This document shows positions 922 through 23,685 of a stretch of DNA of 64,000 nucleotides, piece by piece. Position 1 is the stretch's first letter. Each line of letters opens with the position of its first letter. The stretch spans positions 1 through 64,000 of the forward strand of contig JACQWY010000018.1 of assembly GCA_016209015.1 (NCBI GenBank), given 5' to 3'. The stretch comes from Gammaproteobacteria bacterium (lineage in GTDB: Bacteria; Pseudomonadota; Gammaproteobacteria; Ga0077536). Both the position numbers and the translations under genes were made by a program. The notes beneath the pieces were generated by a model. That model searched no databases, had not been told where the DNA came from, and saw only the letters and a program-made list of their open reading frames with translations.

Positions 922-1452
922 ATGCCGCTCGTGATCGCCGCGGCGATCGCGCTGCTGTGGTTCGCCGTACGGATGACGAGCCCCGGCCATTCCGCTCCTG
1001 CCGCGCTCCCCGCCTTCAGCCTGCCGCGTCTCGACGCGCCGGAGTCGCTCGTCGATGCCAGCGCATTGCGCGGCCGGCCGCGCCTGCTGAACGTCTGGGC
1101 GAGCTGGTGCATCGGCTGCCGGCGCGAGCACGACGTGCTGCTCCGGCTCGCCCGCACCGGCACGATCGAAGTAAGCGGCATCGCTTGGCGTGACGATCCG
1201 CGCGACGCCAGGCGCTGGCTCGAGCAGCTCGGCAATCCGTTCGCGCTGGTGATGCTCGACGCGGACGGCGCGGTCGCTGCCCGGCTCGGCGTGACGGCTG
1301 CACCGGAATCGCTGTTGATCGGCGCAGACGGCGCCATACTGCGGCGCCATGCCGGCCCCCTGACGGAGGAAATCTGGCGCGCGGAGTTCGCGCCGGCGCT
1401 CAGTGCAGCGGTGCCGCCTGCCACTGCGGTGCCGGCGGCGAAGCCGCGCTGA
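922..1452 (+). CDS. TlpA/ResA/CcmG-like membrane-anchored thiol-disulfide oxidoreductase
   Basis: A 176-residue protein with an N-terminal membrane anchor (residues 1-16), a linker and a thioredoxin fold. The redox motif is WASWCIGCRREH, with C63 and C66. In System II cytochrome c biogenesis this type of protein reduces the CXXCH cysteines of apocytochromes in the periplasm, which fits the CcsA/ResB genes at 7670-9440 and the many cytochromes nearby. I chose ATG 922 because it starts directly at the anchor; an in-frame upstream start at 856 would overlap the preceding gene. The 3' end overlaps the converging cytochrome gene by 53 bases. Confidence 0.8.
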   Translation: MPLVIAAAIALLWFAVRMTSPGHSAPAALPAFSLPRLDAPESLVDASALRGRPRLLNVWASWCIGCRREHDVLLRLARTGTIEVSGIAWRDDPRDARRWLEQLGNPFALVMLDADGAVAARLGVTAAPESLLIGADGAILRRHAGPLTEEIWRAEFAPALSAAVPPATAVPAAKPR

Positions 1453-2356
1453 CCGCCGTCGCGACCGGCCCCTGGCCGGTGGCGAGCACGTCGCGCACGT
1501 AACTCAGGACCGCGTCCACACCCTCCGCGCCGAGCACGTCGCGCCAGGCGGGCATGGAGCTGTTCGGCACGCCGTCGTCGATCGCCCGGCGCAGATCCCG
1601 CTCGGGCATGCGCGCGACGTCGACGGAGCTCAGATCGCGCGGATGCGGTTCGAGGAAGCTCCCGATCCAGTTCCGGCCCGTGCCGTCGTCCGCATGGCAG
1701 AACGCGCAGTTCGCCGCGAAGAGCTCCGCGCCCCGGCGTTGCAGCGGAGTCCGGGCCGCCGCGCCGCGCGCGACGTCTCCACCCGGCCCACGCTGCCACG
1801 ACGGCGCCCCGACCCGTCCGCGGCCGAGGTCGTGACAGGCTACGCAGGCCGCGAGATAGAGCTGCCGCCCCGCGCGCTGCGTGGCCTCGAGCCGTTCGGG
1901 CGGTGTCGTGATCGCGAGCTCGCCGGTCGCGAACGGGAACGCCGCCGCATAGCGCTCGTGATCCGGCCACCCGTTCGCCGCGGTGTGATAGCGCGTCCGC
2001 TCGTGACGACGGTCCATCAGCTCGCCGCGCACGAAATCGACGACCGCGGCGATTTCCGCGGCCCGCAGCACGCGTCCGAATGCGGGCATCGCCGTGCCGG
2101 CGCGGCCGTTCGTCACCGAGGCGAGCATGCGCTCACGCGGCAGATCCTCACGCCGCGTGCCGGCGAAGTCGCGCGGCGGCGGATCGACGTAGGCGCGGGT
2201 CAGCGTCTGCGCATCGCCGGAATAACCGTGGCATTGATAGCAGTGGAAGTCGTAGATCTCGCGCCCGGCGCGGACCTCGGACGCGGCGGATGCCGTCACC
2301 GCCGCGATCGCACCGAGCAGCGCGATCGCGGCACGCGCGACGAAGCCCGGTCTCAC
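1400..2356 (-). CDS. Periplasmic triheme cytochrome c
   Basis: A 318-residue protein with a Sec signal (hydrophobic residues 7-25) and three heme-attachment motifs: CYQCH at 39-43, CVACH at 171-175 and CAFCH at 217-221. The first and third sit in cytochrome c class I-like domains with MPAFG or MPAW Met-ligand candidates. The start is a GTG overlapping the TGA of the upstream propeller gene (GTGA), implying translational coupling. It is the last gene of the minus-strand series beginning at 5689. The role is probably electron transfer; the partner is unknown. Confidence 0.85.
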   Translation of the reverse strand: MRPGFVARAAIALLGAIAAVTASAASEVRAGREIYDFHCYQCHGYSGDAQTLTRAYVDPPPRDFAGTRREDLPRERMLASVTNGRAGTAMPAFGRVLRAAEIAAVVDFVRGELMDRRHERTRYHTAANGWPDHERYAAAFPFATGELAITTPPERLEATQRAGRQLYLAACVACHDLGRGRVGAPSWQRGPGGDVARGAAARTPLQRRGAELFAANCAFCHADDGTGRNWIGSFLEPHPRDLSSVDVARMPERDLRRAIDDGVPNSSMPAWRDVLGAEGVDAVLSYVRDVLATGQGPVATAVSAASPPAPQWQAAPLH

Positions 2357-3681
2357 CGCAGGTTCTTGATGCGCGCGACGCCGCCGAAGCTGCCGACCCA
2401 CGCACTGCCGTCCGCGGACGTCGCCATCGAGAACACCGTGTTCGCGAACAGGCCGTCCTTCGTCGTGAACACCTTGAAGCCGTCCGCCGTCTTCAGCGCG
2501 AGGCCGTTGCTCGTACCGATCCAGAGGCGGCCCGCCGCGTCCTCGTGCAGCATGAAGACGTGATTGCCCGGCAGCCCGTCGGCGACGGTGTAGTTCTTCC
2601 AGTGCGTGCCGTCGAAGCGCGCGAGACCGCCGCCCCAGGTGCCGCACCAGACGATGCCGTCGCGATCGACGGTGAGCGCGACGATGTAGTTCGGGTTGTA
2701 GGCGACGTCGACGTTCTTCAGGCCCATTTCGCTCTTCTGGCGCGCGTGGTGGCTCGAATACTGCGCAGGATCGTTCTTGAACTGGATCTGGTCCTTCACG
2801 AGCGCGTAGTCCGCGCCGAGACCGTCCTCGTGCCGCCAGTGCGTCCACTGACCGTCCACGAAGCGCGCGAGTCCGCCTTCGGTCGCGAGCCAGATGGCGC
2901 CGCGCTGATCCGTGGTGAGCGCATAGACCCAGTCGTTCGGCAGGCCGCCGTCCGTGTTCTTCACCGTGTAGAGATCCCACTTCGAGCGATCCGTCAGCGC
3001 GCCGCCGCGCACGCGGTTCACGCCGGACCACGTCGCGATCCACACGTCGCCGTTCGCGGCCGCGAGCACGTCGTAGACGAAGGGATCGCCGAGGCCGTCC
3101 GGGATGTTGAAGATCTGCCAGCTCTCCTTCGCGGCATCGAACAGGGCCATGCCGCCGCCGTACGTGCCGACGACGAGGCGCTCGCCGATCTTGCCGACGT
3201 GGAAGATGCCGTTCGCGAGCAGTCCGCTGCGCAGATCGAAGAGGCGATATTCCTCGCTCTTCAGGTCGTAGCGCACGACGCCGCCCGACGTCCCGACCCA
3301 CAGCAGATCGCCGTCCGCGAGGATCGCCTTCACGTTGCGATCGCCCACCCGGAAATGCGTGTACGGCGCCTCGCCCTCCGTGCCCGCGGCATGCGCGACG
3401 CCCTCGCGCGGCGGGGCGACGGGCTCTGCGGGTGGCGCCTCGGCGTGCGCAGCGGCGACCGCCGGAGTGTGCGCGTCCGTGCGGCGCAGCGGCTCGGCAT
3501 GCGCCTGGGCCGGTGCGGGCCCCGGTTCATTCGCGGCGACCGGCGCAGGCGCGGGATCCTTCGCGGCGGCTCTCACCGGCGCGGCGACGGTGGCAGGCTG
3601 CCGCCCCGCGAAGTATCCGCCGGCCGCCGCGAGCACCGCGGTCAGCGTCAACACGGGCAACACGTATCTCGAATCGATCAC
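2353..3681 (-). CDS. Exported Reg_prop (two-component-regulator-type) beta-propeller protein
   Basis: A 442-residue protein with an N-terminal membrane anchor or signal (residues 6-25), an Ala/Pro-rich linker to about residue 100, then repeated blades of the pattern LWVGTSGGVVRYD, IWLATEGGLARF, VWCGTWGGGLARF and LWIGTSNGLALK. These are Reg_prop repeats, normally the periplasmic sensor half of hybrid histidine kinases, but no kinase is fused or adjacent. A GTG start follows GAGGTGAGCAG. The gene lies between a second propeller and a triheme cytochrome, so a scaffold or redox-complex role is possible; the function is not established. Confidence 0.82.
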   Translation of the reverse strand: MIDSRYVLPVLTLTAVLAAAGGYFAGRQPATVAAPVRAAAKDPAPAPVAANEPGPAPAQAHAEPLRRTDAHTPAVAAAHAEAPPAEPVAPPREGVAHAAGTEGEAPYTHFRVGDRNVKAILADGDLLWVGTSGGVVRYDLKSEEYRLFDLRSGLLANGIFHVGKIGERLVVGTYGGGMALFDAAKESWQIFNIPDGLGDPFVYDVLAAANGDVWIATWSGVNRVRGGALTDRSKWDLYTVKNTDGGLPNDWVYALTTDQRGAIWLATEGGLARFVDGQWTHWRHEDGLGADYALVKDQIQFKNDPAQYSSHHARQKSEMGLKNVDVAYNPNYIVALTVDRDGIVWCGTWGGGLARFDGTHWKNYTVADGLPGNHVFMLHEDAAGRLWIGTSNGLALKTADGFKVFTTKDGLFANTVFSMATSADGSAWVGSFGGVARIKNLR

Positions 3682-3690
3682 CTGCTCACC

Positions 3691-4758
3691 TCACTTCTGC
3701 GCGAGCCCGAGGCGGCTCACGCCTGCTTTCGTGCCGAGCCAGACCTCGCCGTTCGCGGCGCGGGCGATCGCATAGACGTTGTCGTCCGCGAGGCCGCTCG
3801 TGTGGTCGAACGTCTGCCATTGTCTGCCGTCGTAGCGCGAGGCACCGTGATTCGTGCCGAACCAGAGCGTGCCGTCCGCTTCGCGTCCGATGCTATAGAC
3901 GATGTTGCCCGCGAGCCCGTCGGCCGTGGTGAGATTCGTCCAGCGCCTGCCGTCGTAACGCGCCACACCCCCGCCCCAGGTGCCGGCCCACACCTGGCCT
4001 GCCGCGTCGATCGTCAGCGCGAACACATACCCCGGGTTGTAGGTCTCGTCGCCGGCGAGCGCGGTGTTCAAGTCGTGGCGCGTGCGCGTGCCGAGACCGG
4101 TATTGCGGCTCGCCGGCAGATTGCGCGAGTTCGGTGCGCCGAGCCCGTCGGCATGCGTCCAGTGACGCCACGTCTTGCCGTCGTGGAGCGAGATGCCGCC
4201 TTCCGTGCCGAACCAGACGCGCTGGCTCCGATCGACGGCGATCGCATAGACCCATTCGTTGACGAGCTCGTTCTTGTAGGTCGTGAACTTCATGGTCTCG
4301 AGATCGACGCTGTTCGCGCCCGCCCAGGTGCCGATCCACAGCGTGCCGTTCGCCTGCTCGGCGAACGCATAGCCCCAGTAGTCGGCGAGTCCGTGCATCG
4401 GGAAATAGACTTTCCAGACGTCGTCGCGGAAACGCGCGACACCGCCCGCGTTCGTGCCGAACCACTTGTAACCCCGGCTGTCGACGAACGTCGCGAAGAC
4501 GTATTCGTTCGCGAGGCCGTCCTTGCGCGTGTAAGTGTGGCGCGGTGTCTTCGTCGCGAGATCGATTTCGAGCACGCCCGTCGAGGTCCCGACCCACAGC
4601 GCGTCGCGCTGCGGCTCGAGCGCGAGCGAGCGGACGTAGATCGGATCGCCGACGCGGAACGTGTCGAGCACCTTCATCGTCGCGGTGGCCGGATCGCCGG
4701 CACGCCCGGCGCCTGCAAGCAGGACGAGGATGAACGCGAGGAGCGCGCGTACCGTCAA
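3691..4758 (-). CDS. Exported Reg_prop beta-propeller protein (paralogue of the next gene downstream)
   Basis: A 355-residue protein with a cleavable signal (residues 5-20) followed almost at once by propeller blades (LWVGTSTGVLEID, WFGTNAGGVARF, LWIGTWAGANSVD, VWFGTEGGISLHD, VWAGTWGGGVARYD, LWFGTNHGASRYD, VWLGTKAGVSRLG). Compared with its downstream neighbour it lacks the Ala/Pro linker. The best start is TTG 4758, overlapping the stop of the upstream monoheme cytochrome gene (TTGA), because it places the signal at the N-terminus. Two propellers in tandem among cytochromes suggest a periplasmic assembly, but no ligand can be inferred. Confidence 0.8.
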   Translation of the reverse strand: MTVRALLAFILVLLAGAGRAGDPATATMKVLDTFRVGDPIYVRSLALEPQRDALWVGTSTGVLEIDLATKTPRHTYTRKDGLANEYVFATFVDSRGYKWFGTNAGGVARFRDDVWKVYFPMHGLADYWGYAFAEQANGTLWIGTWAGANSVDLETMKFTTYKNELVNEWVYAIAVDRSQRVWFGTEGGISLHDGKTWRHWTHADGLGAPNSRNLPASRNTGLGTRTRHDLNTALAGDETYNPGYVFALTIDAAGQVWAGTWGGGVARYDGRRWTNLTTADGLAGNIVYSIGREADGTLWFGTNHGASRYDGRQWQTFDHTSGLADDNVYAIARAANGEVWLGTKAGVSRLGLAQK

Positions 4759-5060
4759 CGCAGAGTCCTCAGATAGGCGATGACGTCCATGATGTCCTCG
4801 TGCTTCAGCACGCCGCGATAGCCGGGCATGGCACGCTTGCCGTCGCTGATGCGCGAGAAGAGGACGGGGTCGGGCAACACGAGGCCCTGGCTGCGCTCGA
4901 AGTGCGGCGCGCCGGGCATCACGGGCCGGCCGTTCGGGCCATGACACGCGGCGCAATGCGCAGCGTAGAGATCCTTGCCCTTGAACACGCTGCCCGCGTG
5001 TGTGCCGGGAACGATGGCGGCGAGGAGCAGCATACCGAGGCGGATCCGGACGCTGTTCAT
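4755..5060 (-). CDS. Small monoheme cytochrome c
   Basis: A 101-residue class I cytochrome c with a signal peptide (residues 1-22), heme motif CAACH at 36-40 and a Met-ligand candidate in KRAMPGY. The size and the IAYLRTL C-terminal helix are typical of a soluble periplasmic shuttle. The ATG overlaps the TGA of the Sel1 gene (ATGA), so it is coupled to it. Likely a mobile electron carrier for the multiheme proteins encoded nearby. Confidence 0.88.
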   Translation of the reverse strand: MNSVRIRLGMLLLAAIVPGTHAGSVFKGKDLYAAHCAACHGPNGRPVMPGAPHFERSQGLVLPDPVLFSRISDGKRAMPGYRGVLKHEDIMDVIAYLRTLR

Positions 5061-5689: not shown

Positions 5690-5732
5690 GGCTTCCTCCA
5701 CGGCGCGAGGCCCGATGCCCCGGCGCCACCCC

Positions 5733-6677
5733 TCAAGGCTTTTCCGATTTATTCCCCGCCGCGGCGATAAAGTTCACGTAGACGTATTCGGCGAGGTTCG
5801 CGATCTGCTGGTCCGAGAGCACCTTGCCCCAGGCCGGCATCTCGCGGCCCACCACGCCGTCGCGGATGCCGGCGAAGAGCCGCGCCCGATCGTAAGTCGC
5901 CCGCGTCGCCGGATGGATGAAGTTGCGGGGCTTCGGATAGATGAAGTACGCGCGCGGGCCGTTGCCGTCGCCTGCGATGCCGTGGCAGCCGATGCAATTC
6001 TGCACGTAGAACGCCTGGCCGAGCGCGGCGTCCGCCACGATGTTCGCGGGATAGGGGCCGGCCGCCGGCGCGGTCACGCTGGCCGCGGCGACCTTCATGA
6101 ACGTGGTGCGGATGTAGTCGACGACGGCCGCGACGTCCTCCGGCGGCAACTGCCGCGAGAACGAGGTCATCGCCGTTCCGGGCCGGCCGTAAGTGACGGA
6201 GGCGATCATGCGTTCGCGCGAGAGATCCTCGCGCGCCGCGGGGGCGGTGAAATTGCGCGGCGGCGGATTCAAGGATTTCTCGCCCCATACCGCACCGGCG
6301 CCGTTGTCGCCGTGGCAGACGCTGCAGTTCGTCGCGAAGATGCGCGCGCCGCGGCCGGCATCGCCGTCGCGCGCGGCCATGAAGCGGCCGCGGATGTAAT
6401 CGACGAGCGAGGCGATCTCCGGCGCGGACAGCCGGCTCGACCATCCGACCATCGCCGTGCCCGGACGGCCGTTCGAAACCGAGGCGATCATGCGCTCGCG
6501 CGAGAGCTCGGCGGCGGCGGCACTCGCGGTGAAATCGCGCGGCGGCGGCTGCATGCCGCCGCGCACGTGCGAATTCCCGTCACCCGCGTCGCCGTGGCAC
6601 ACGGAGCAGTTCGAGGCATAGAGGCGCTCGGGCGACTCCTGCGCGCCGGCCGCCGCCGCCATCGCGAGCAGCAGCAT
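5733..6677 (-). CDS. Three-domain (triheme) cytochrome c
   Basis: A 314-residue protein with a signal peptide and three successive class I cytochrome c domains, with motifs CSVCH (24-28), CSVCH and CIGCH. The first two domains are close duplicates sharing the GRPGTAM Met-ligand region; the third uses VVGREMPAWG. This resembles the cytochrome subunits that accept electrons from periplasmic dehydrogenases or pass them to oxidases. ATG 6677 gives a proper signal; an in-frame upstream start at 6800 would translate through the palindrome at 6691-6703. That palindrome sits only 14 bases before the start. Confidence 0.84.
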   Translation of the reverse strand: MLLLAMAAAAGAQESPERLYASNCSVCHGDAGDGNSHVRGGMQPPPRDFTASAAAAELSRERMIASVSNGRPGTAMVGWSSRLSAPEIASLVDYIRGRFMAARDGDAGRGARIFATNCSVCHGDNGAGAVWGEKSLNPPPRNFTAPAAREDLSRERMIASVTYGRPGTAMTSFSRQLPPEDVAAVVDYIRTTFMKVAAASVTAPAAGPYPANIVADAALGQAFYVQNCIGCHGIAGDGNGPRAYFIYPKPRNFIHPATRATYDRARLFAGIRDGVVGREMPAWGKVLSDQQIANLAEYVYVNFIAAAGNKSEKP

Positions 6678-6690
6678 GCCGGCGAGTAAC

Positions 6691-6703
6691 GTGACTAAGT
6701 CAC
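6691..6703. promoter_or_regulatory. GTGAC-N3-GTCAC palindrome (candidate CRP-family operator, copy 1)
   Basis: Perfect 13-base palindrome with arms GTGAC/GTCAC around TAA (TTA on the other strand). It lies 14 bases upstream of the triheme cytochrome ATG at 6677. The same motif recurs at 21803 and 23918. The CRP-family regulator at 21891-22547 is the obvious candidate binder. Its closeness to the start codon would suit repression, or a start further downstream than assumed. Confidence 0.6.
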
Positions 6704-6926
6704 AGAAGGTTTTCGATCGCGTGAGGTCGTGGGCGGGGATCCCGTTCGTCGCGGCTCGCGGACATCCGGGCCGCAGCTCTCTGCGCTGCGTTCGAGTCAC
6801 CGGTATGACCGTCAGCCCGGGTAATGGACTGCGTGTCGAATCATGCTGCCTGATCTGTTCGACTCGTCGCTGCGCGACGAGCGGGACGAATCTTAACGGA
6901 TCACGTGCAGGGGCGGGAAGCCGGCT

Positions 6927-7457
6927 TCAGTTCAGATGACAGCCGAGACAGAGCCCGGTGCCGCCGCGGCCGCTCGCGAGACGTTTGTCGGCGAGACACT
7001 GGCCCGCGAGCACCGCGCTGCTGTCCATCGTCGCGAGCTCGCGCACGTCGTGCTTCTCGAGTTGATGGCAGCTCACGCAGCTCGTGCGGCCGTCGACGAG
7101 GCGTATCTCGGTGCCGAGCTCTTCGCTGCGGCGATAGGACGAGGGATCGCGGCGCACCACGTCGTCGTAACGCGTGCCGACGGGATGACTCGCAGGCGGC
7201 GCGCCCGCGGCCTGCGCTTCGATGACGAGCGCGGGCGGCATGCGGTTCACCGCGGCATGACACAGGAGACACGCCCGGCCGACGCTGTCCGCTTCCGCGG
7301 GCCCGGCCGCGACCTGTTGCGTCGGGCTCGCGACCGGCCCGTCCGTCACGGCCGCTTTCAGGCGCGCGAGGAAGTCGCCCGCACCGGCCTCGCTCGAAAT
7401 CACGAGCGTGCACAGCGCGAAGGCGGTCGGCAGGTATCGGAGAAACTTGTGCACCAC
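6927..7457 (-). CDS. Triheme cytochrome c, exported
   Basis: A 176-residue protein with a signal peptide (KFLRYLPTAFALCTLVISSEAGA) and motifs CLLCH, CVSCH and a C-terminal CLGCH that ends the protein. Spacing and low hydrophobicity recall NapB/NrfB-like or doubled-CXXCH periplasmic carriers, but no family is certain. It starts at a GTG. About 210 bases separate it from ccsA upstream and 249 bases from the next cytochrome gene downstream; no terminator or other gene is evident in those gaps. Confidence 0.8.
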   Translation of the reverse strand: MVHKFLRYLPTAFALCTLVISSEAGAGDFLARLKAAVTDGPVASPTQQVAAGPAEADSVGRACLLCHAAVNRMPPALVIEAQAAGAPPASHPVGTRYDDVVRRDPSSYRRSEELGTEIRLVDGRTSCVSCHQLEKHDVRELATMDSSAVLAGQCLADKRLASGRGGTGLCLGCHLN

Positions 7458-7669: not shown

Positions 7670-8500
7670 TCAGCCGAGGCCTTTGTGAGGCGCGAGGCTC
7701 AGGAACGGCATGCCGAAGAACGTGAGGAACGCGAGGCCGAAGACGGCCACGACGAGGCACCAGCCGAGCGGCCGCGGGATCGACCAGGCGAGGCGCAGAT
7801 GGAGGGCGACGGCCATCACGAGCCAGGTGAGGAAGGCGGAGGTCTCGAGCGGATCCCAGGCCCACCAGCGGCCCCAGGTATCGTTCGCCCACACCGCGCC
7901 GGCGACGAGCATCGCACCGTGACAGAGGAAGGCGAGCGTCATCGTCTGCCACAGGTGCCGCTCGACGGCCTCGCTGCACGCGGCCGGCATGCGCTGCCGG
8001 GCGCGGAGGTCCCAGAGCAGCCCGCCGGCCCAGCCGAGCGCGATCGTGCAGAGACCGAGGAAGATTTTGCCGAAGCCGACGTGCGCCCACAGCCAGGGAT
8101 TCCCGAAGCTCGCGGGCAGCGGCGCGGGCGCCTTCGAGACCTGCGTCGACCACAGTGCGAGCAGCACGACGGCGAGCAGCGCGATGCGCAGCGCTGCACG
8201 CGCCTCGGTCACCCGCGTCGCGACGACAAGCGCGACGACGCCGAGCGTGCAGAGATTGCTGATCTGCACTTCGAACAGGGTGAGGAACGGGCCGTGCCCG
8301 ACCGCGAGCCAGCGCACCGCGACGAGGCTCGCGTAGACGAGCGCCGCGATCGCCGTGAACCACAGCGCGAGGCCCGCGCGCGGCCCGTCACGGAGACTCG
8401 CGAGCCAGGCCGCGCCGTAACAACCGGCCCCGCTCCAGCACAGCGCGGACTCAAGCACGCGCGCCGCTGCCGTCACGCGCGAAGCCGCGCGCGCGCTCAC
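7670..8500 (-). CDS. ccsA: Cytochrome c biogenesis protein CcsA/ResC (System II heme handling)
   Basis: A 276-residue polytopic membrane protein with about eight hydrophobic segments and the WWD heme-binding signature WGRWWAWDPLET near residue 210. Conserved histidines flank the motif. With ResB it delivers heme to apocytochromes on the periplasmic side and forms the two thioether bonds. It overlaps the resB gene by 50 bases if the GTG at 8500 is the start; GTGs at 8476 and 8461 are alternatives. The pair is embedded in the cytochrome locus and probably matures its products. Confidence 0.9.
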   Translation of the reverse strand: MSARAASRVTAAARVLESALCWSGAGCYGAAWLASLRDGPRAGLALWFTAIAALVYASLVAVRWLAVGHGPFLTLFEVQISNLCTLGVVALVVATRVTEARAALRIALLAVVLLALWSTQVSKAPAPLPASFGNPWLWAHVGFGKIFLGLCTIALGWAGGLLWDLRARQRMPAACSEAVERHLWQTMTLAFLCHGAMLVAGAVWANDTWGRWWAWDPLETSAFLTWLVMAVALHLRLAWSIPRPLGWCLVVAVFGLAFLTFFGMPFLSLAPHKGLG

Positions 8501-13883: not shown

Positions 13884-14254
13884 CAGTATTCTCCCGGCCC
13901 GAGCGTCTTGTGGCCGCCGCGCACGCCGGTTTTGAGGCCCGCACGCGCGGAATGACAGAGATCGCAGTTCTCCGCCGACCAGGCGACCTCGCCGTTGTGG
14001 CAGGCGCCGCAGAAGCGCCCGTCGGATATTTTCGCCATGTCGATCTCGTTCGAGCCCGCGCGCATCTGGATGCCGAGCTCCTGATGGCAGACGCGGCACT
14101 GGAAGCGGATGCGATGGAACCAGTGCGGAAAGATCACCGGACGCACGCCGGCCTTCTCGGAATAGCCGTTGATGACGACGTCACCGTACTCCGCCCGTAC
14201 CGGCGTCGCCGCCGGGGCGCAGATCGCGAGCAGCAGGATGCAGCGGCGGATCAC
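13883..14254 (-). CDS. c7-type triheme cytochrome (cassette copy 1, gene A)
   Basis: A 123-residue protein with a signal peptide, then EYGDVVINGYSEKAG, PHWFH and three motifs CRVCH, CGACH and CDLCH. Outside the motifs there are exactly three histidines, enough for bis-His ligation of three hemes as in cytochrome c7. It is a clear paralogue of the gene at 17337 (shared EYGDVVIN, PVIFPHWFHR, CGACHNGE). The GTG start overlaps the preceding stop. Likely a periplasmic carrier that docks at the porin. Confidence 0.86.
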   Translation of the reverse strand: MIRRCILLLAICAPAATPVRAEYGDVVINGYSEKAGVRPVIFPHWFHRIRFQCRVCHQELGIQMRAGSNEIDMAKISDGRFCGACHNGEVAWSAENCDLCHSARAGLKTGVRGGHKTLGPGEY

Positions 14255-15655: not shown

Positions 15656-15680
15656 AGTGCTGTCCTCCGCGCGGCGCGGG

Positions 15681-16601
15681 TCATGGGATGGGCAGGCCGC
15701 TGCCGCGCAGCGCCCGGATGAGATAGCCGGTGCCGTTCTCGAGCTTCGTGATCGCCGCCGGGAAGGCCCCGGCGCTCGCCTGCACGTTCGCATCGGCCCG
15801 CATCGTGTCGTTCTGCCGCACCATCTCCGCGACGAGCGCCGTCTGCTCCTCGGGGATCTGGCCCTGCCGTTCGAGCATCTCGAGCAGCATCACGTAGGCC
15901 TGGTTGCGGCGCTTCTCGTATTCGTACTCTTCGGCCGGCGAATCGAAGCTGAGCGCGTCCAGCAGCGTCTCGCCCTTGCGGATTTCGGTGAGCGCGACTT
16001 CGACGCGCGCCGCCGCTTCGACGAGGCTGCGATTCGCCGCTTCGAAGTCGCCCGCGGTCGCCGCGAAATCCGCGCTGCTCACGAAACCCTGCACCGCGCC
16101 GCGATCGAGCAGGCTGTCCGCGGCCGGGCCCTTCTCCTTCGCGATGCGCTCGAACGCTTCGCGAAAGCTCGCGATGCGTGCCTTCAGCTCTTCGTAGCGC
16201 CGGCTATCGTCGCGGCGCCGCGCCTGCGGATCGACGACGAGACGCGCCGCTGCGGAGAATGCGCGCAGGCCGTCGTTCGCGGCGCGCTCGGCGGCCGCTT
16301 CCTCGCCCGCCGAGAGCAGGCGCGTTGCCTCGCCGGCCGCCTTGCGCGCCTCGGCGAGCAGTTCCTCCGCACGCGACGCGCCCGTCAGGGCCTCGATGCG
16401 TTGCGAAGCCGGCGAATTGCGCACGAGGTCGTTGAGGAGCGCGACCTTGTTGTCGAGCCCCTTGTGCTGCTCGACGGCCGCCGGGGCGAGCTCGTGCGTC
16501 GTCGCATCGACCTGCGCCGAGACGCAGGGTGCGGCGAAGACGAGCAGCAACGCGGTCCGGCGCAGCACGCGCACGGCACGGCGATCAACGGGCTGGCGCA
16601 T
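15681..16601 (-). CDS. Exported coiled-coil protein of unknown function (cassette copy 2, gene C')
   Basis: A 306-residue paralogue of the next gene. The signal (RRTALLLVFAAPCVSA) is followed by long amphipathic helices and the conserved GETLLDALSFDSPAEEYEYE block and RALRGSGLPIP tail. GGAGG stands just before the ATG, and the start overlaps the end of the upstream triheme gene by 17 bases. No catalytic or metal-binding motif is visible. Being duplicated together with two different triheme genes implies a shared function with them. Confidence 0.7.
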   Translation of the reverse strand: MRQPVDRRAVRVLRRTALLLVFAAPCVSAQVDATTHELAPAAVEQHKGLDNKVALLNDLVRNSPASQRIEALTGASRAEELLAEARKAAGEATRLLSAGEEAAAERAANDGLRAFSAAARLVVDPQARRRDDSRRYEELKARIASFREAFERIAKEKGPAADSLLDRGAVQGFVSSADFAATAGDFEAANRSLVEAAARVEVALTEIRKGETLLDALSFDSPAEEYEYEKRRNQAYVMLLEMLERQGQIPEEQTALVAEMVRQNDTMRADANVQASAGAFPAAITKLENGTGYLIRALRGSGLPIP

Positions 16602-17328: not shown

Positions 17329-17336
17329 CACCCCGC

Positions 17337-17735
17337 TCACTGCCTCGGCTTCGGCTTGGCCGGCGCGAGCAGCTTCTGCACCGTGCTCTCGTGCACCTGT
17401 GTCGGCGTGCCCGGCTTCGCCGAGTGGCACATGTCGCAGTTCTCGACCGACCAGGCGATCTCGCCGTTGTGGCAGGCGCCGCAATACTCGCCGTCGATGA
17501 TCTTCATCATGTTGATCTCATTGCCCCCCGCCTTGAACTTGAACCCGAGGTCCGCATGGCAGGCCGCGCAGCGGAAGCGGACGCGGTGGAACCAGTGCGG
17601 AAAGATCACCGGCCGCATGCCCGCGGCGTCCGAATAGTTGTTGATGACGACGTCGCCGTATTCCGCCGTGGCGGGCCCCGCGAAGCCCGGCAGCAGTAAC
17701 AGGGCGCCCACGATACGAAGGCTGCGCGCGCTCAA
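17337..17735 (-). CDS. c7-type triheme cytochrome (cassette copy 2, gene A')
   Basis: A 132-residue paralogue of the gene at 13883. After the signal it reads EYGDVVINNYSDAAG, then motifs CAACH, CGACH and CDMCH; again exactly three further histidines (two in PHWFH, one in VHEST) can complete bis-His ligation. The start is a TTG directly after a strong GGGGAGGAACG ribosome-binding site; no ATG or GTG start fits better. It follows the outer-membrane barrel gene by 50 bases, so it may be the periplasmic donor to that porin. Confidence 0.84.
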   Translation of the reverse strand: MSARSLRIVGALLLLPGFAGPATAEYGDVVINNYSDAAGMRPVIFPHWFHRVRFRCAACHADLGFKFKAGGNEINMMKIIDGEYCGACHNGEIAWSVENCDMCHSAKPGTPTQVHESTVQKLLAPAKPKPRQ

Positions 17736-17785
17736 CGTTCCTCCCCACGATTCCCTGTTGCGTTCATGTTCGTGCCGCCTCACCG

Positions 17786-19579
17786 TCACAGCCCGCCGAA
17801 ATGCCGCCGGACCTGGAACAGCAGCAGCGAGCGCCCGTTGTCCCGGAACTGCGAGAGCCTGCCGATGAGCCGGAAATCGATGCGCCCGATGCTGTACTCG
17901 AGCCGGTTCTCCCAGTCCATGTCGTCGCGCGCATAGGGATCCGTCGGCTCCGTGACGAGCGGCAGATAGGTATCGCTGATGAGCCGCACCGTCGAACGGA
18001 AACGCAGGCGCGGCACGTCGAACACCTGCTGGCTCTGATACGTCACGTCGAGCGTCGCGACGGGCAGGAAGCCATCGCTCTGGCGGCCGAACGCGAACGT
18101 CGAGGCATTGCCCGCCTTCTGGCGGATGGCCTGCATCGTCACGTCGCCGCTCAGCGAGGAGCTGCGGCCGAGGCGCTGATCGACGGAGAACTGCAGGTTC
18201 AGGAGCTGGAATTCGTTGCGCTCGTCGCCGAGGCGGCCGCCGCCGCCGAACGTCCGCGAATCGCTGACCGAGACGCGCGCGATCGTCGAGCGCGCGAGCT
18301 CCTGATAGGACCAGGTCGCGCCGGCGTCGTGGAGCAGGATCAGCACGCGCCGGCCTTCGGTGTCGGCGAGCGCGGTCGTGCTCTCGTTCGAGCTGAGCGT
18401 GAGCATGGAGCTGCCGAACGGCACGGCCCGCGTCACGTTGTGGCCGACCTCGACGGACTGCGTCTGCAGCGCGCCCAGCGGATCGGTGTCGTTCTCGAGG
18501 CTGCCGCCGAGGATCCAGTTGTACTGGAAGCCCCAGAGCTCGTGATCGTCGGAGGTGTACGTCGCCCCCGCGCGCTGGAACGTCACGGTCGTCGTCGCAC
18601 CTTCCGGCGCGATGTGCGTCATGCCGGCATCGGCGGTGAACTGCAGGTTCGGCGTCCACTCGTAGCTCGTGCCGACGGTGCCGGTGAAGCTCGTCGCGGT
18701 TGAATCCTGGAGCTGCGTCTGCGTACCGAAGCGCAGGACGCGGAACGTGCCGTTCACGAGCAGCGGGCGCTTCGACTCCGGACGCCAGAACGCGAAGCTG
18801 TTGAGCTGGACGAGATCGTTGTCGAACGCCGTGCCGCGCTGGCGCACGCCGATGTGATTATAGGTGAGCTGGGTATCCGCGGACAGGCGCGGTCCCGGCC
18901 GGTAGCCGTGACGCAGCAGACCGAACAGCGTGTCGACCTGATCGCCCGTCTCCGTGCGATCGAGGCTCTGCAGATCGCTGTCGAACGTCACGTCGTGTGC
19001 GCCGAAACTGCGGTTCGCACCGAACTGCAGGATGTCGAGCGAGTCGTTCTGATCGGCGGCGCCGGGCACGAGCCGCCCGATGTCCTGCCGGATGTCCTGG
19101 TGTTCGTAGCGGCCGTGGAACGTCGTGCCGTTCTCGGCGGTGTAGCGCTGCGAGATGCCCATGCGCGTGACGTCGAAATCGATGCCGGAGAGCGTGGAGT
19201 CGACCGTGCTGTCCGTGCGCTCGAAGAAGGCCTCGAAGGGGAAGCGGCTCATGGGGAAGAGCCGGAGCTTCGCGAGGCCGGAGACGATCTGCGCGTTCGT
19301 GCTCTCGCCCTGGCCGTCGGATTCGCGGAACGTCGCGCCGAAGCCACCCTCCACCCGGGCGAGCCACGGCTCGTAGACATAGCTCGTGCCGTTCACCCGC
19401 ATGATGCCGAGGTTGTCCGTTTGCGAACCGAAGCGATCGATCGTTTCATGACGAAGGTCGTAACCGATCTCACCGCGCAGACTGAGTGGCGGCCACGCGG
19501 CTTGCGCGGCGAGTGACGTCGCGGCGAGCAGGAGCCCGCCGATCCATCGGCCGCGCGCGCATGCACCGGACAGCGCCAT
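17786..19579 (-). CDS. Outer-membrane beta-barrel protein (porin of a cytochrome conduit)
   Basis: A 597-residue protein with a signal (GGLLLAATSLAAQA) and then alternating aromatic/polar strands throughout, ending in an aromatic-rich segment (LLLFQVRRHFGGL) as barrels often do. I count many candidate strands separated by polar loops, more than enough for a barrel of over 20 strands. Large barrels next to multiheme cytochromes are the outer-membrane sleeves of Geobacter-type porin-cytochrome conduits; MtrB/PioB are the Shewanella/Rhodopseudomonas counterparts. No CXXC typical of MtrB is evident at the N-terminus. Assignment rests on composition and context. Confidence 0.75.
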   Translation of the reverse strand: MALSGACARGRWIGGLLLAATSLAAQAAWPPLSLRGEIGYDLRHETIDRFGSQTDNLGIMRVNGTSYVYEPWLARVEGGFGATFRESDGQGESTNAQIVSGLAKLRLFPMSRFPFEAFFERTDSTVDSTLSGIDFDVTRMGISQRYTAENGTTFHGRYEHQDIRQDIGRLVPGAADQNDSLDILQFGANRSFGAHDVTFDSDLQSLDRTETGDQVDTLFGLLRHGYRPGPRLSADTQLTYNHIGVRQRGTAFDNDLVQLNSFAFWRPESKRPLLVNGTFRVLRFGTQTQLQDSTATSFTGTVGTSYEWTPNLQFTADAGMTHIAPEGATTTVTFQRAGATYTSDDHELWGFQYNWILGGSLENDTDPLGALQTQSVEVGHNVTRAVPFGSSMLTLSSNESTTALADTEGRRVLILLHDAGATWSYQELARSTIARVSVSDSRTFGGGGRLGDERNEFQLLNLQFSVDQRLGRSSSLSGDVTMQAIRQKAGNASTFAFGRQSDGFLPVATLDVTYQSQQVFDVPRLRFRSTVRLISDTYLPLVTEPTDPYARDDMDWENRLEYSIGRIDFRLIGRLSQFRDNGRSLLLFQVRRHFGGL

Positions 19580-19685: not shown

Positions 19686-20690
19686 TCAGCGCGTCTTGCC
19701 GGCGAGCGCTGCATCGCCCGGCTCCGCCGCCACGACGTCGATCTTCGCAGCCGCCTTCAGCCGCGCCCGCAGCTCGCTCCACGCCCGTTCGCCGCGTTCG
19801 CGGCGCAGGAGCGCGAGCGCACGCTCCTTCACGTCGGCGAATTCGCGCTGGCGCGGCTCGCGCCGATCGACGAGCTTGAAGATCGCGACGCCCTCGAGGA
19901 CCGTGACGGCGTCCGAGATCCCGCCCGGCTGCAGCTTCGCGATCGCTTCTTCCGCCGCAGTGCTCAGCATGCCGGCATGCAGATAGCCCATGTCGCCGCC
20001 CGACGCCGCCGTCTTGTCCGCGGACTTCTCGCGCGCGAGCACCGCGAAGTCCCCGCCCTTGCGCAGCGCGTCGAGGATCTCCGCGGCTTCGGCGCGGGCC
20101 TTGTCCCAGGCTTCCGTCGGCGCGGACGGATCGACCGCTTTCAAGATCAGTGCGACGTGATCCTGCCGCGGCTCCGTGAACTTCTCGGGATGCTCGAGGT
20201 AGAACTTCGCCGCCTCGTCCGCGCCCGGCGCAGCGGCGTCGCGCGTTCTGGCCTCGAGCTGGCCGAGCACGTCGTCGTCGCGCAGCAGCCCGCCGAGCGT
20301 GGCGAGCGCCTTCTCACCCTGGGTCGGCCATTGCGGCGACTTCTCGTAACGCTCGCGATAACGCGTGAGCTGGGCGGTGATCTTCGACTCGTCGGCCGCG
20401 AGACCGAGGCGCTTCGCTTCGCGCACGAGCAGCACGCGCTGGATGAGCTGCTCGCCGACCTCCTGCCGGATCTGTTCGCCGAGATTCTCGGGCGGCGCGC
20501 CGTGGTAATAGCGGGCGCGGACGGTGCGGGCGAGCACGCCCGCGAACTGCGCCTGCGTGATCGTCATGTCGTCGACCGTCGCCCAGACCGGCTCAGTCGT
20601 CGCGGCCGCGGGCTCCGCGGCCGCCTGCAACGCCGCCCCGAGCAACAGGCCCGCGATGGTGAGTAGTCTCGTCTGCATGCTGGCACCCAT
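19686..20690 (-). CDS. Parvulin-type peptidyl-prolyl isomerase, periplasmic (PpiC/SurA-like)
   Basis: A 334-residue protein with a signal (LLTIAGLLLGAALQAAA), an N-terminal SurA-like helical chaperone region (about 40-160) and a rotamase domain (about 165-270) containing HVALILKAVDP, GGDFAVLAREKSADK, GGDMGYLHAGMLS and LQPGGISDAVTVLEGVAIFKL. It would assist folding of exported proteins. A PpiC gene next to a tetraheme cytochrome and porin also occurs in Geobacter OmcS/OmcE-type regions as far as I recall. It is the first gene of the long minus-strand series 20690-7670. Confidence 0.86.
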   Translation of the reverse strand: MGASMQTRLLTIAGLLLGAALQAAAEPAAATTEPVWATVDDMTITQAQFAGVLARTVRARYYHGAPPENLGEQIRQEVGEQLIQRVLLVREAKRLGLAADESKITAQLTRYRERYEKSPQWPTQGEKALATLGGLLRDDDVLGQLEARTRDAAAPGADEAAKFYLEHPEKFTEPRQDHVALILKAVDPSAPTEAWDKARAEAAEILDALRKGGDFAVLAREKSADKTAASGGDMGYLHAGMLSTAAEEAIAKLQPGGISDAVTVLEGVAIFKLVDRREPRQREFADVKERALALLRRERGERAWSELRARLKAAAKIDVVAAEPGDAALAGKTR

Positions 20691-20846: not shown

Positions 20847-21659
20847 CTACTTCGAGTGGCAGGTCGTGCAGATCTGACTCGCGGTATTCGGAATGCGCAG
20901 GAACGCGACGGTCGTCGGCCCCTTCGTATCGGCGTTGTGCGGATCGTGGCAGCTCCCGCACTCGACGAAGGGCTGCACCGTGCCGAGATCGTTCCGCGCG
21001 TAGAGCACCATGTCGCTCTTCTCGCGCTGCGCCGAGGCGCCGATCGGGCTGTCCACCCACCACACCGGCTGGCCGTTCACCGTGGCTTTCACGGGCTTCT
21101 TGAAGTCCGGATCCTTGAGCGTGCCGGCGAAGAGACCATCCGCGTCCGTCGCCAGCGCACCGCCGCCGCCGTACTGCATGCTGATCGGATGATCGTTCGT
21201 CAGATCCTTGCCGAGCATCGGCACGGGACTGCCGGTCATCGCACCGAGCGCGGCCGTGTCGATCTGCTGGCCGCCGGCGTTCCAGCCGCCCGAGCCCGGC
21301 AGGTTGATCACGACATCCATCGCCTGACTGCCGTCGTGGCACGACAGACAGGCCAGCGACACCGAGCCGACCGGCGCTTCGCTCGCGTCGAACGAGGGCG
21401 TGGCGAGCGTCGAGTACTGCGTGAAACCGCCGGACGGCGGCAATACCTTGTTCCACAGCGGCACCGGCGCATTCGTCGCCGAACCGTGCGGCGTATGACA
21501 GAACACGCACACCTCGTTCGTTTTCGACGTACTGCCCTGGCCTTGCCCGCCCGCGGTGAGATCGTGCTGGCTGCCGACCACCCCGGCACTCGCGGAATTG
21601 CCCAGCGCGGTACCGAGGCCCAGCACCGCGACGACCACGCTCGTTCGAAACGCTCTCAT
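20847..21659 (-). CDS. OmcE-like tetraheme cytochrome (candidate extracellular nanowire subunit)
   Basis: A 270-residue secreted protein: signal 1-25, then CVFCH (51-55), CLSCH (104-108), CGSCH (234-238) and CTTCH (264-268). The whole protein has just four other histidines, H32, H58, H157 and H241, so all four hemes can be bis-His ligated. The order QHDL...CVFCHTPHG...CLSCHDG...NDHP...CHDPH is that of Paired_CXXCH proteins including the filament-forming OmcE of Geobacter. ATG 21659 is preceded by CAGGAGCTGCAC. A GTGAC-type operator lies 144 bases upstream. Filament formation is an inference. Confidence 0.8.
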   Translation of the reverse strand: MRAFRTSVVVAVLGLGTALGNSASAGVVGSQHDLTAGGQGQGSTSKTNEVCVFCHTPHGSATNAPVPLWNKVLPPSGGFTQYSTLATPSFDASEAPVGSVSLACLSCHDGSQAMDVVINLPGSGGWNAGGQQIDTAALGAMTGSPVPMLGKDLTNDHPISMQYGGGGALATDADGLFAGTLKDPDFKKPVKATVNGQPVWWVDSPIGASAQREKSDMVLYARNDLGTVQPFVECGSCHDPHNADTKGPTTVAFLRIPNTASQICTTCHSK

Positions 21660-21802: not shown

Positions 21803-21815
21803 ATGACAAAGTCAC
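21803..21815. promoter_or_regulatory. TGAC-N3-GTCA palindrome (candidate CRP-family operator, copy 2)
   Basis: TGAC-AAA-GTCA core with flanking A and C, matching the 6691 and 23918 sites except in the outer left base and the centre. It lies in the 231-base gap between the regulator gene and the tetraheme cytochrome, 144 bases before the latter's ATG. The position fits control of the cytochrome by the neighbouring regulator. Confidence 0.5.
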
Positions 21816-21890
21816 ACACCCCTGGGCCGGAATTGATCGCGCTCAACTGCGACGGGCATTCATTACGCAGATCGTTCACGACGCACGTCC

Positions 21891-22547
21891 TCATGCGAGC
21901 TGTGCGAGTTGCGACAGCGCGTCGACGTCGAGCAGCTCGATGCGGATCCGGCCGAGACGTACCCAGCCCTGGCGCTCGAACTGTTTGAGATGACGGCTGA
22001 TCACTTCGCGTGCGGTGCCGATTTCGATGGCGAGAGAATCCTGCGAGACGCGGAGCGGCGCGGGCGGCTGCGCATTCAGGCACAACCATTTCGCGAGCCG
22101 GGTGTCGACGCGTCCGAACGTGATGCCCTCGACGAGATCGATGATCTGCTGGAAGCGCTCGGCATAGGCGCGGGACACGTACTCGCGGAAACCCGGGCAT
22201 TCCGCGAACGCGTGATGGAACGACGCCGCGGGCAGCACGGCCACGCGCACCGGCGTCTCGGCCATCACCGTCGCCCGGATCGGCACGGCGTTCGCGAACG
22301 AGGCCGTGCTCAGCACGCAGATCTCGCCGCGCGTCACTCGATAGAGCAGCACTTCGCGTCCGCACGCCGATTCCTTCGATACGCGGACCCGCCCGTCGAG
22401 CACGAAGTGCACACCGAGACAGGCGTCGCCCGGCTTGAACACCACCGAGCCCGGCGCGATGACGTGTTCGCGCGCTTCCTGTGCGATCGTGCGCCACGCC
22501 GGATCGGCGATGCCCGCGAGATCGGGAAAGGCGTTCAACCAGCGCAT
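21891..22547 (-). CDS. CRP/FNR-family transcriptional regulator
   Basis: A 218-residue protein: cyclic-nucleotide-binding-type beta-roll (about 20-125, with VFKPGDACLGVHFVLDGRVRV), dimer helix (FQQIIDLVEGITFG) and a C-terminal winged helix with recognition helix GTAREVISRHLKQFE. The R-E-x3-R pattern there matches CRP, which reads TGTGA, rather than FNR (E-x2-SR). No N-terminal cysteine cluster is present, so it is unlikely to be an Fe-S oxygen sensor. AAGGA precedes ATG 22547. It follows the NHL lipoprotein gene by 13 bases, so both are probably co-transcribed. Confidence 0.88.
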   Translation of the reverse strand: MRWLNAFPDLAGIADPAWRTIAQEAREHVIAPGSVVFKPGDACLGVHFVLDGRVRVSKESACGREVLLYRVTRGEICVLSTASFANAVPIRATVMAETPVRVAVLPAASFHHAFAECPGFREYVSRAYAERFQQIIDLVEGITFGRVDTRLAKWLCLNAQPPAPLRVSQDSLAIEIGTAREVISRHLKQFERQGWVRLGRIRIELLDVDALSQLAQLA

Positions 22548-22560
22548 TCGCCGTTCCTTC

Positions 22561-23685
22561 TCACTTCGTCGCGACGCTGGCGGCGCCGCCGAGCGCGCCC
22601 GCCGCGACATCGAGCGCCGCCGGCCGGAACACGTCGACCTTGTGGAAGAACTGGTCGACCATCAACACGCGGCCGTCGGCATCGACGTCGATCCCGGCCG
22701 GCAGCATGTAGCCGGCGCGCTCGGGACGATCGGCGCGATGGCCGACGAACAGCAGCAACTGACCCTGCGGATCGAAGACCTGGAAGTTGCCGTGCGCGGC
22801 ATCGGAGACGTAGACGTTGCCCGTGCCGTCCACGGCCACGCCCTTCGGCCGCGCGAACTGGCCGTACTGCCGTCCGAGCGAGCCGAAAGTGCGCACGAAC
22901 GTGCCGTCCTGCTTCAGCACCTCGATACGGAAGTTCGCGCTGTCGACGACGTAGATGAGGCCGTCCCGTCCGACTTTGATGTCCTTCGGCAGGTTGAACC
23001 TGCCCGGCCCGTCGCCACGCTCGCCGATGTCCTGGAGGTGCGCGCCGCTCACGGCATCGAAAACGCGCACGCGATGGTTCTGCGACGACACGCCGCCGGT
23101 GTCGACGGCGAAGAGGCGCGTGCCCTCCTGGTTCACGGCCACGTGCGAGAGGCGTTCGAATTGATCCGGGCCGCCGATCGCCCGCAGGAAGCCGCCGGCG
23201 CCGTCGTAGACCTTGATGCGGCGTTCGCTCGCGTCGACGACGTAGACGTTGCATTGCGCATCGGTGGAAATGCCGAGCGGTTTGACGAGCATGCCGGGAT
23301 CGGCCTTGCCGAATTCCTCGAACTTGCGCGCCTTGACGTCGAACACGACGACCGTGCGACGCACGGTATCGGAGACATAGACGCGGCCGCCGCAGGCACT
23401 CACGCCGAAAGGCTTGACGAGGCCGAGCGCGCCTTTCGCTTCACCGGTCAGCACCTGGCGCAGCCGATCGCTGTCGCGCTCCTCGGTAACGTCTTCGCTG
23501 GTGGCGAGCGTGCGTTCGTAATAGAAGCGCGCCGGATCCGGCGGTGCCGGAAACGCGAGCGGGGTCACGGGGACCGGCTCGGGCTCCGGCCGTGTCGCGG
23601 CGGCTTGCTCGTTGCAACCCGCTGCACCGAGCAGCAGTGTGCCGACGAGCAGGATCCCGAGTGCGGTCTTGGCGTGTGCGTTCAT
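22561..23685 (-). CDS. NHL-repeat beta-propeller lipoprotein
   Basis: A 374-residue protein with signal and lipobox LGAAGC, an Ala/Pro/Glu linker, then NHL blades (PFGVSACGGRVYVSDTVRR, PLGISTDAQCNVYVVDASER, PKDIKVGRDGLIYVVDSANFR, PKGVAVDGTGNVYVSDAAHG, PAGIDVDADGRVLMVDQFFHK). It is a homologue of the lipoprotein at 11854. NHL lipoproteins occur beside nanowire-type cytochromes in Geobacter, where their role is unclear. The ATG at 23685 places the signal at the N-terminus. A long palindrome containing the GTGAC motif lies about 230 bases upstream. Confidence 0.85.
   Translation of the reverse strand: MNAHAKTALGILLVGTLLLGAAGCNEQAAATRPEPEPVPVTPLAFPAPPDPARFYYERTLATSEDVTEERDSDRLRQVLTGEAKGALGLVKPFGVSACGGRVYVSDTVRRTVVVFDVKARKFEEFGKADPGMLVKPLGISTDAQCNVYVVDASERRIKVYDGAGGFLRAIGGPDQFERLSHVAVNQEGTRLFAVDTGGVSSQNHRVRVFDAVSGAHLQDIGERGDGPGRFNLPKDIKVGRDGLIYVVDSANFRIEVLKQDGTFVRTFGSLGRQYGQFARPKGVAVDGTGNVYVSDAAHGNFQVFDPQGQLLLFVGHRADRPERAGYMLPAGIDVDADGRVLMVDQFFHKVDVFRPAALDVAAGALGGAASVATK

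What the first reader, a model, noticed from the sequence alone, without database searches (positions are those of the whole stretch)
1400..23685. 22-kb locus with 37 predicted hemes, a porin and dedicated maturation factors: candidate extracellular electron-transfer system
Ten c-type cytochromes (3, 1, 3, 3, 11, 3, 3, 3, 3 and 4 CXXCH) lie with an outer-membrane barrel, PpiC, three NHL proteins, two Reg_prop propellers, CcsA/ResB and a CRP-family regulator, mostly with overlapping stops and starts. This is a complete conduit-like set beside hydrocarbon-oxidation genes, suggesting an organism that can couple hydrocarbons to insoluble or remote electron acceptors.
Basis: partly seen in the sequence, partly recalled or inferred. 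Interest (0 to 1): 0.78.

Follow-up and report, generated by a model that had tools for sequence, protein, structure and literature searches.

The report
Uet-type extracellular electron-transfer gene cluster
This stretch of DNA encodes heme proteins and an outer-membrane barrel that bacteria probably use to pass electrons through their outer wall; the set is already described under the name Uet, but its small outer protein belongs to the family that forms electron-conducting protein filaments, which suggests how such filaments might be anchored and ended.

Summary
In detail: 37 CXXCH motifs, all on the minus strand, in ten cytochrome genes, with a barrel, PpiC, three NHL proteins, ResB/CcsA and a CRP-type regulator. 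The kind is not new: the gene set equals the published Uet (undecaheme electron transfer) cluster of Tenderiales, Gallionella and Leptothrix. Of 80 named relatives fetched here, 71 have tetraheme, PpiC and barrel in this order and 58 of them also at least three c7 cytochromes and an NHL protein; all 19 UetJ homologues not cut by a locus end have exactly 11 hemes. Polymerisation and direction are inferred, not shown.

The parts
23917..23931 (-). palindrome TGTGACTAAGTCACG upstream of the first NHL gene
   Evidence: one of only two places in the 5.7-Mb genome with at most 1 mismatch, both in this locus
22561..23685 (-). NHL-type protein with a lipobox-like N-terminus (start chosen by eye); homologue in 65 of 80 named loci
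   Evidence: not scanned against Pfam
21891..22547 (-). CRP-family transcriptional regulator
   Evidence: NCBIfam CRP-type matches, E about 3e-10, under cut-off
21803..21816 (-). degenerate copy of the palindrome, about 145 bp upstream of uetA
20847..21659 (-). UetA: tetraheme, OmcE-type filament-subunit family
   Evidence: phmmer to 7tfs E 2.4e-22 and 9yuq E 1.2e-24; exactly 8 His
19686..20690 (-). UetB: PpiC-type peptidyl-prolyl isomerase
   Evidence: Pfam Rotamase E 1.6e-15
17786..19579 (-). UetC: outer-membrane beta-barrel, about 28 strands
   Evidence: AlphaFold2 mean pLDDT 91.2; MtrB first by VIA Z but tied with other barrels
17337..17783 (-). triheme c7 cytochrome (UetD-like); start uncertain
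   Evidence: PF14522, TIGR04257
16585..17322 (-). triheme c7 cytochrome with N-terminal extension (UetE-like); start uncertain
15681..16601 (-). protein without Pfam or NCBIfam match (UetF-like)
   Evidence: homologues in related loci
14792..15655 (-). paralogue of the preceding protein
   Evidence: 31% identity over 211 aa, E 2e-22
14251..14787 (-). triheme c7 cytochrome, paralogue of 16585-17322
   Evidence: 45% identity
13883..14254 (-). triheme c7 cytochrome, paralogue of 17337-17783; start uncertain
   Evidence: 58% identity
12930..13886 (-). NHL-type protein (UetH-like)
   Evidence: Pfam NHL just under cut-off; synteny
11854..12933 (-). NHL-repeat protein with lipobox-like N-terminus (UetI-like); start chosen by eye
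   Evidence: Pfam NHL E 1.9e-22
9422..11857 (-). UetJ: undecaheme cytochrome; residues 6-226 align with OmcE (three CXXCH), a fourth CXXCH follows at 256-260, then seven more hemes
   Evidence: 7tfs E 1e-23; 19 of 19 uncut homologues have 11 CXXCH
8451..9440 (-). ResB-like cytochrome c assembly protein
   Evidence: Pfam ResB; downstream of UetJ in 17 of 19 full loci
7670..8500 (-). CcsA-like cytochrome c assembly protein
   Evidence: Pfam Cytochrom_C_asm; in 17 of 19 full loci
6927..7457 (-). triheme protein without family match
6690..6704 (-). palindrome TGTGACTTAGTCACG upstream of the class I cytochrome block
5733..6680 (-). three-domain class I cytochrome c; exact start not set
   Evidence: PF13442 three stretches; relatives in 56 of 80 loci
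4755..5060 (-). single-heme class I cytochrome c
   Evidence: PF13442
3691..4758 (-). Reg_prop propeller 1; start uncertain
   Evidence: PF07494; relatives in 15 of 80 loci
2353..3681 (-). Reg_prop propeller 2
   Evidence: PF07494
1400..2356 (-). class I cytochrome c with three CXXCH; start uncertain
   Evidence: PF13442; relatives in 54 of 80 loci

Best explanation
The locus is a Uet-type porin-cytochrome system. UetJ sits in or on the UetC barrel and carries electrons across the outer membrane; its N-terminal OmcE-like domain is the first unit of an extracellular chain of UetA tetrahemes, joined when each unit donates a histidine to a heme of its neighbour. The four c7 trihemes and the class I cytochromes carry electrons through the periplasm, the NHL and Reg_prop propellers are scaffolds or docking proteins, PpiC and ResB/CcsA fold and heme-load the cytochromes, and the local CRP-type regulator switches three promoters through a TGTGACT-N-AGTCACG site. 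In this organism the net flow is more likely inward, from an extracellular donor such as Fe(II) or a solid towards oxygen and CO2 fixation, than outward from hydrocarbons. Shown: gene content, homology, synteny, ligand conservation, rarity of the site. Inferred: place of each protein, polymerisation, assembly order, regulator-site pairing, direction.
For: Gene set equals the published Uet list: UetJ, UetA, UetDEG, UetB, UetHI, UetC (passages). Of 80 named loci, 71 have tetraheme, PpiC and barrel in this order on one strand, 58 of them also at least three c7 and an NHL protein. All 19 UetJ frames not touching a locus end have 11 CXXCH; ResB and CcsA are each found downstream in 17 of 19. UetA and the UetJ N-terminus match chains 7tfs (OmcE filament) and 9yuq. 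UetA has exactly 8 His; 7 are invariant in 116 of 116 sequences and the eighth is in 100 of 116. Barrel model pLDDT 91.2. Palindrome confined to this locus; its core recurs, with up to 2 mismatches, within about 250 bp upstream of the uetA match in 6 of 8 homologous loci with a CRP gene directly before uetA. Own genome: MtrB/PioB-type porin, decaheme, NapC/CymA-type and RuBisCO operon, eight COX1-family hits. In Ca. Tenderia on a cathode the undecaheme and three triheme genes cluster in expression with terminal oxidase and complex III genes (passages).
Against: No expression, heme-stain or filament data exist for this organism. The UetA AlphaFold2 model is poor (pLDDT 44.1), so its fold rests on sequence homology; the second aligned stretch to 7tfs is weak by itself. 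Homology to the Tenderia proteins themselves was not tested; the match is by gene content. In Ca. Tenderia the undecaheme gene was not differentially expressed with electrode potential, while cyc2 was (passages). An undecaheme cytochrome is cited from a Mn(III)-reducing Dechloromonas, which points the other way on direction, and Mto/Mtr conduits may run both ways (passage). The palindrome core also occurs exactly twice in the 72 other loci. The physiological role of cytochrome filaments is disputed in print (PMC11077965, listing and start of abstract).
Confidence: 0.6

Rival explanations
1. The same conduit works outward: electrons from hydrocarbon or other organic oxidation leave to metal oxides or a partner when oxygen is short.
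For: OmcE filaments are known from a metal reducer (passages); a paper cites an undecaheme cytochrome in a Mn(III)-reducing Dechloromonas (passages); the c7 trihemes are of a family that includes those of Geobacter.
Against: Published Uet carriers are cathode or iron oxidisers (passages); the genome has Calvin-cycle genes and eight COX1-family hits; the flanking window genes have no relatives in the homologous stretches examined.
Confidence: 0.3
2. UetA does not polymerise; it is a monomeric outer-surface tetraheme docking on UetJ, and the donor-position His serves its own heme.
For: No Uet filament has been shown in anything read here; the literature on cytochrome filaments is contested; the UetA structure could not be predicted.
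Against: Homology over most of its length to chains of two solved entries, one of them the OmcE filament; same four distal His and, in 115 of 115 relatives, a C-terminus two residues after the last CXXCH; upstream paralogues lack one particular ligand in 16 of 16.
Confidence: 0.35
3. The cytochromes belong to a soluble periplasmic respiratory enzyme (nitrite, tetrathionate or similar reductase), with the barrel unrelated.
For: Several parts are probably periplasmic; class I cytochromes and Reg_prop genes are accessory.
Against: No enzyme family reaches its cut-off for the cytochromes scanned (NCBIfam was run on six of the ten); tetraheme, PpiC and barrel keep the same order in 71 of 71 loci that have all three.
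Confidence: 0.04

Closest known systems
Uet cluster (uetABCDEFGHIJ) of Ca. Tenderia electrophaga, also reported in Gallionella and Leptothrix
   Same: Tetraheme, PPIase, barrel, c7 trihemes, NHL proteins and undecaheme in one locus (passages of PMC10734462, PMC12575090, PMC13386937)
   Different: This copy has four c7 and two proteins of the unnamed family instead of three and one, as if part of the operon was duplicated, plus a CRP gene and a class I cytochrome/Reg_prop block; Reg_prop relatives are in 15 of 80 loci
OmcE cytochrome filament of Geobacter sulfurreducens (PDB 7tfs)
   Same: UetA aligns in two stretches with all four CXXCH, all four distal His and the same C-terminal end
   Different: Here with a barrel, undecaheme and maturation genes in one operon; the Geobacter omcE neighbourhood was not examined
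MtrCAB/MtoAB porin-cytochrome conduit (PDB 6r2q)
   Same: Large barrel plus multiheme cytochromes; MtrB is first by VIA Z, 16.9, in a tie
   Different: UetC has no MtrB/PioB match and UetA/UetJ are far below the DmsE-family cut-off; 11 hemes in an OmcE-headed protein instead of a decaheme; the genome has a separate MtrB/PioB-type cluster on another contig
PCC3 and PCC4 clusters of iron oxidisers
   Same: Porin with multiheme cytochromes in Proteobacteria (passages of PMC5566968)
   Different: PCC3 has much larger cytochromes and a five-helix inner-membrane protein; I saw neither here

Membership tests
Uet | undecaheme cytochrome UetJ | tested here: met
   11 CXXCH in the window and in 19 of 19 uncut homologues
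Uet | tetraheme UetA, PPIase UetB, barrel UetC, c7 trihemes UetDEG, NHL proteins UetHI in one locus | tested here: met
   list taken from passages
Uet | sequence homology to the Tenderia electrophaga proteins themselves | not tested
   the founding paper (10.1128/msphere.00223-22) is not held and no locus titled Tenderia was among the 80
OmcE-type cytochrome filament subunit | sequence homology to 7tfs over most of the length | tested here: met
   E 2.4e-22, two stretches, query 11-199 and 233-271
OmcE-type cytochrome filament subunit | four hemes, each with proximal and distal His available | tested here: met
   exactly 8 His in UetA; 7 invariant in 116 of 116, eighth in 100 of 116
OmcE-type cytochrome filament subunit | same three-dimensional fold | tested here: inconclusive
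   AlphaFold2 pLDDT 44.1; no fold search was run on that model
OmcE-type cytochrome filament subunit | polymerisation with a His from the adjacent subunit on one heme | not testable with these tools
   needs cryo-EM
MtrB/PioB porin-cytochrome complex | barrel of the MtrB/PioB sequence family | tested here: not met
   no Pfam or NCBIfam match for UetC; the same searches find the family in another protein of the genome
MtrB/PioB porin-cytochrome complex | MtrB-like barrel fold | tested here: inconclusive
   6r2q_B first at Z 16.9, rmsd 12.4, 406 aligned, but tied with unrelated barrels
PCC3 | periplasmic cytochrome of 21-27 hemes and an extracellular one of 10-35 | tested here: not met
   largest here is 11 hemes, the tetraheme has 4; ranges for Gallionellaceae

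The most novel reading that the evidence does not exclude
Uet operons build OmcE-type conductive filaments with encoded ends: UetJ is the membrane-anchored base whose OmcE-like domain starts the chain, UetA is the repeating unit, and the upstream UetA paralogue that lacks the donor histidine is the terminal cap. How such filaments are attached to the barrel and ended would then be readable from sequence in many beta- and gammaproteobacteria.
Probability: 0.3. Interest if true: 0.8.

Novelty: new member of a known kind. Interest (0 to 1): 0.5.

Why it matters
It moves the claim from 'candidate conduit' to a named, widespread system, gives it a structural template (OmcE) and a specific test for two questions that I take to be open: how cytochrome filaments are joined to the outer membrane and how they end. 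It also questions the direction: a bacterium with oxygenases, Calvin-cycle genes and Mto-like genes may be taking electrons up.

Tried and rejected
UetA structure prediction from 20 sequences gave pLDDT 44.1 and was not used for a fold search. UetJ without its N-terminal part (window 9422-11050) has no meaningful match among solved-structure sequences; the one row has E 0.22. The barrel's Foldseek list is led by TonB-type receptors, with MtrB at rank 13, so the fold comparison says 'large barrel' and little more. Rfam gave nothing at gathering scores. A tRNA-Arg call inside uetC is taken as a false positive. Association with the flanking genes was tested with 17 window proteins against the open frames of 100 fetched stretches and gave no hit at E 1e-10. 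Soluble-enzyme and PCC3 readings were considered and dropped. Papers wanted but not held: so I could not check whether the founding Uet paper or the 2023 survey of extracellular cytochrome filaments already states that UetA is an OmcE homologue. Searches that bear on it; no listing or passage that I saw says so, but papers were seen only as listings and passages. That OmcS donates the His just after its first CXXCH to its neighbour is recalled; one search says only that heme 2 of OmcE and heme 5 of OmcS take a His from the adjacent subunit.

Rows dropped and limits: the ligand count used open frames with exactly four CXXCH whose best window match was UetA, 115 of 122; the other seven are one truncated at a locus end and six five-heme relatives, all seven with the donor-position His. 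The 115 are not independent: 114 of 116 rows in the tree differ, and some genomes occur both as named and as unnamed loci. The UetJ heme count excludes 54 of 73 frames that touch a locus end. The CRP-site comparison used the 8 named loci with a CRP gene directly before uetA, not the 13 with any CRP match. A His within 12 residues after UetJ heme 4, once taken as a sign of a base subunit, was absent in 10 of 57 frames and is not used.
Full report
What is there. The window has 41 CXXCH motifs, all on the minus strand; 37 lie between 1.7 and 21.5 kb in ten open frames with 3, 1, 3, 3, 11, 3, 3, 3, 3 and 4 motifs. Domain searches give class I cytochromes, two Reg_prop propellers, ResB, CcsA, NHL proteins, c7 trihemes, PpiC and doubled-CXXCH domains. 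From uetC to ccsA the genes overlap or nearly touch; the class I cytochrome and Reg_prop genes form a second block.

What it is. A paper on Gallionellaceae describes the Uet complex, found in cathode-oxidising Tenderiales, as undecaheme UetJ, extracellular tetraheme UetA, periplasmic trihemes UetDEG, isomerase UetB, NHL proteins UetHI and barrel UetC (passages); a review calls uetABCDEFGHIJ a conserved cluster for extracellular electron uptake (passages), and a Leptothrix paper lists UetJ as a possible iron oxidase (passages). The window matches part by part. A scan of named genomes with an alignment of 20 tetrahemes returned 80 loci, the most the tool gives, out of 577 relatives. All 80 have the tetraheme by construction; 71 also have PpiC and the barrel, in this order and on one strand in 71 of 71, and 58 of these also at least three c7 and an NHL protein; many of the others are short contigs. 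They come mostly from beta- and gammaproteobacteria and Magnetococcales, with single MAG contigs labelled Nitrospirae, Nitrospinota and Caldilineales. The other 54 UetJ frames run into a locus end and say nothing on the count. In a sample of the window's class 52 of 369 genomes have a match to UetA at E 1e-3, some of them partial; in its order only the window's own of 36, so the distribution is patchy. Relative to the ten-gene form, the window has a fourth c7 and a second protein of the unnamed family, paralogues of their neighbours (58%, 45% and 31% identity).

The OmcE link. UetA matches the Geobacter OmcE filament chain 7tfs (E 2.4e-22) and chain 9yuq (E 1.2e-24), in two stretches each; the UetJ N-terminus matches the same two (E 1e-23 and 2.1e-19) over its first three CXXCH, and a fourth follows. 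What 9yuq comes from was not established. UetA has exactly eight histidines, four in CXXCH and four others at places also occupied by His in 7tfs. In an alignment of the window protein with 115 four-heme relatives, seven of the eight are invariant and the eighth, H58 in CVFCHTPH, is in 100 of 116; all 115 relatives end two residues after the last CXXCH. The 16 without H58 are exactly the upstream copies in the 16 loci with two such genes; the downstream copy keeps it in 16 of 16, and no single-copy locus lacks it (0 of 83). A tree needs three changes of this trait, at least two forced by well supported branches; 13 of the 16 form one clade and the other three sit on long branches, so the number of independent losses is uncertain. 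UetJ keeps the matching His in 73 of 73 frames, and in an alignment of 20 UetJ all four distal His of the domain are invariant, with further invariant His beyond.

Mechanism. A review states that heme 2 of OmcE is ligated by a His of the adjacent subunit (passages). From recall, the donor in OmcS is the His just after the first CXXCH, the position of H58. If so, UetA can both give and take, UetJ can give, and the upstream paralogue can take but not give: repeat, base and cap. This is inference; if H58 instead serves its own subunit's heme, the paralogue simply has one heme without that ligand. The window's genome has no such paralogue: its only two matches are UetA and UetJ. UetC is predicted with high confidence as a barrel of about 28 strands; MtrB heads the structural list at Z 16.9 but is tied with unrelated barrels, so only 'large barrel' is safe.

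Direction. The own genome has one MtrB/PioB-family protein, preceded by a decaheme and a monoheme and followed by a NapC/CymA-type tetraheme (over the Pfam cut-off, under the NCBIfam one); no other heme protein was seen in that 16-kb stretch. About 27 kb away on the same contig lie cbbL (769 bits against a cut-off of 438), a frame read by eye as cbbS, cbbX, phosphoribulokinase, fructose bisphosphatase and a LysR regulator nearest to CbbR but under its cut-off. There are eight COX1-family hits, one weak, which may include nitric oxide reductase. Two P450s and a Rieske oxygenase in the window need oxygen (the need for oxygen is general knowledge). Together with the published context this favours electron uptake by an aerobic mixotroph. 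In Ca. Tenderia the undecaheme gene clusters in expression with oxidase and complex III genes but does not respond to electrode potential (passages). Against uptake, a paper cites an undecaheme cytochrome in a Mn(III) reducer (passages). I put uptake at about 0.6, export at about 0.3.

Regulation. TGTGACTNAGTCACG with at most one mismatch occurs twice in the 5.7-Mb genome, upstream of the first NHL gene and of the class I cytochrome block; the pattern read backwards gives none. A weaker copy lies about 145 bp upstream of uetA. In 8 homologous loci with a CRP gene directly before uetA, 6 have the 13-base core with at most two mismatches within about 250 bp upstream of the uetA match; overall 11 hits (1 exact) in 153,856 bases against 19 hits (2 exact) in 1,260,747 bases of the other 72 loci. 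That the neighbouring CRP-type protein binds it is inference.

Verdict. A member of a known but little-studied system, with a clear link to filament-forming cytochromes and a sharp, testable ligand pattern.

Noticed in passing
L135:2777-7922 (own genome contig C50, about 40.8-45.9 kb): monoheme, decaheme (DmsE family), MtrB/PioB-type porin and NapC/CymA-type tetraheme in a row: a second, MtoAB-like conduit in the same genome
   Followed up: yes
L134:7746-13783 (own genome contig C50): RuBisCO large subunit and a frame read as the small one, CbbX, phosphoribulokinase, fructose bisphosphatase and a LysR regulator: Calvin-cycle operon about 27 kb from the MtoAB-like genes
   Followed up: yes
16 loci, e.g. 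L064:7745-8518, L072:7620-8420, L062:8895-9725: upstream tetraheme paralogue of uetA that in all 16 cases lacks the His after the first CXXCH
   Followed up: partly
L062, L069, L071, L073, L077, L114: five-heme OmcE-like relatives near the Uet locus, in five of the six beside a further NHL gene
   Followed up: no
window 25919-31639: arsenic genes (ArsD by Pfam; ACR3-type transporter, ArsC, ArsR and ArsM judged by eye) between the Uet locus and the oxygenase genes
   Followed up: no
window 18320-18405: ARAGORN tRNA-Arg on the opposite strand inside the uetC gene, probably a false positive
   Followed up: no
window 5061-5732: about 670 bases between two class I cytochrome genes without a clear gene
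   Followed up: no
L057, L061, L094: Uet-type genes on MAG contigs labelled Nitrospinota, Nitrospirae and Caldilineales; transfer or binning error
   Followed up: no
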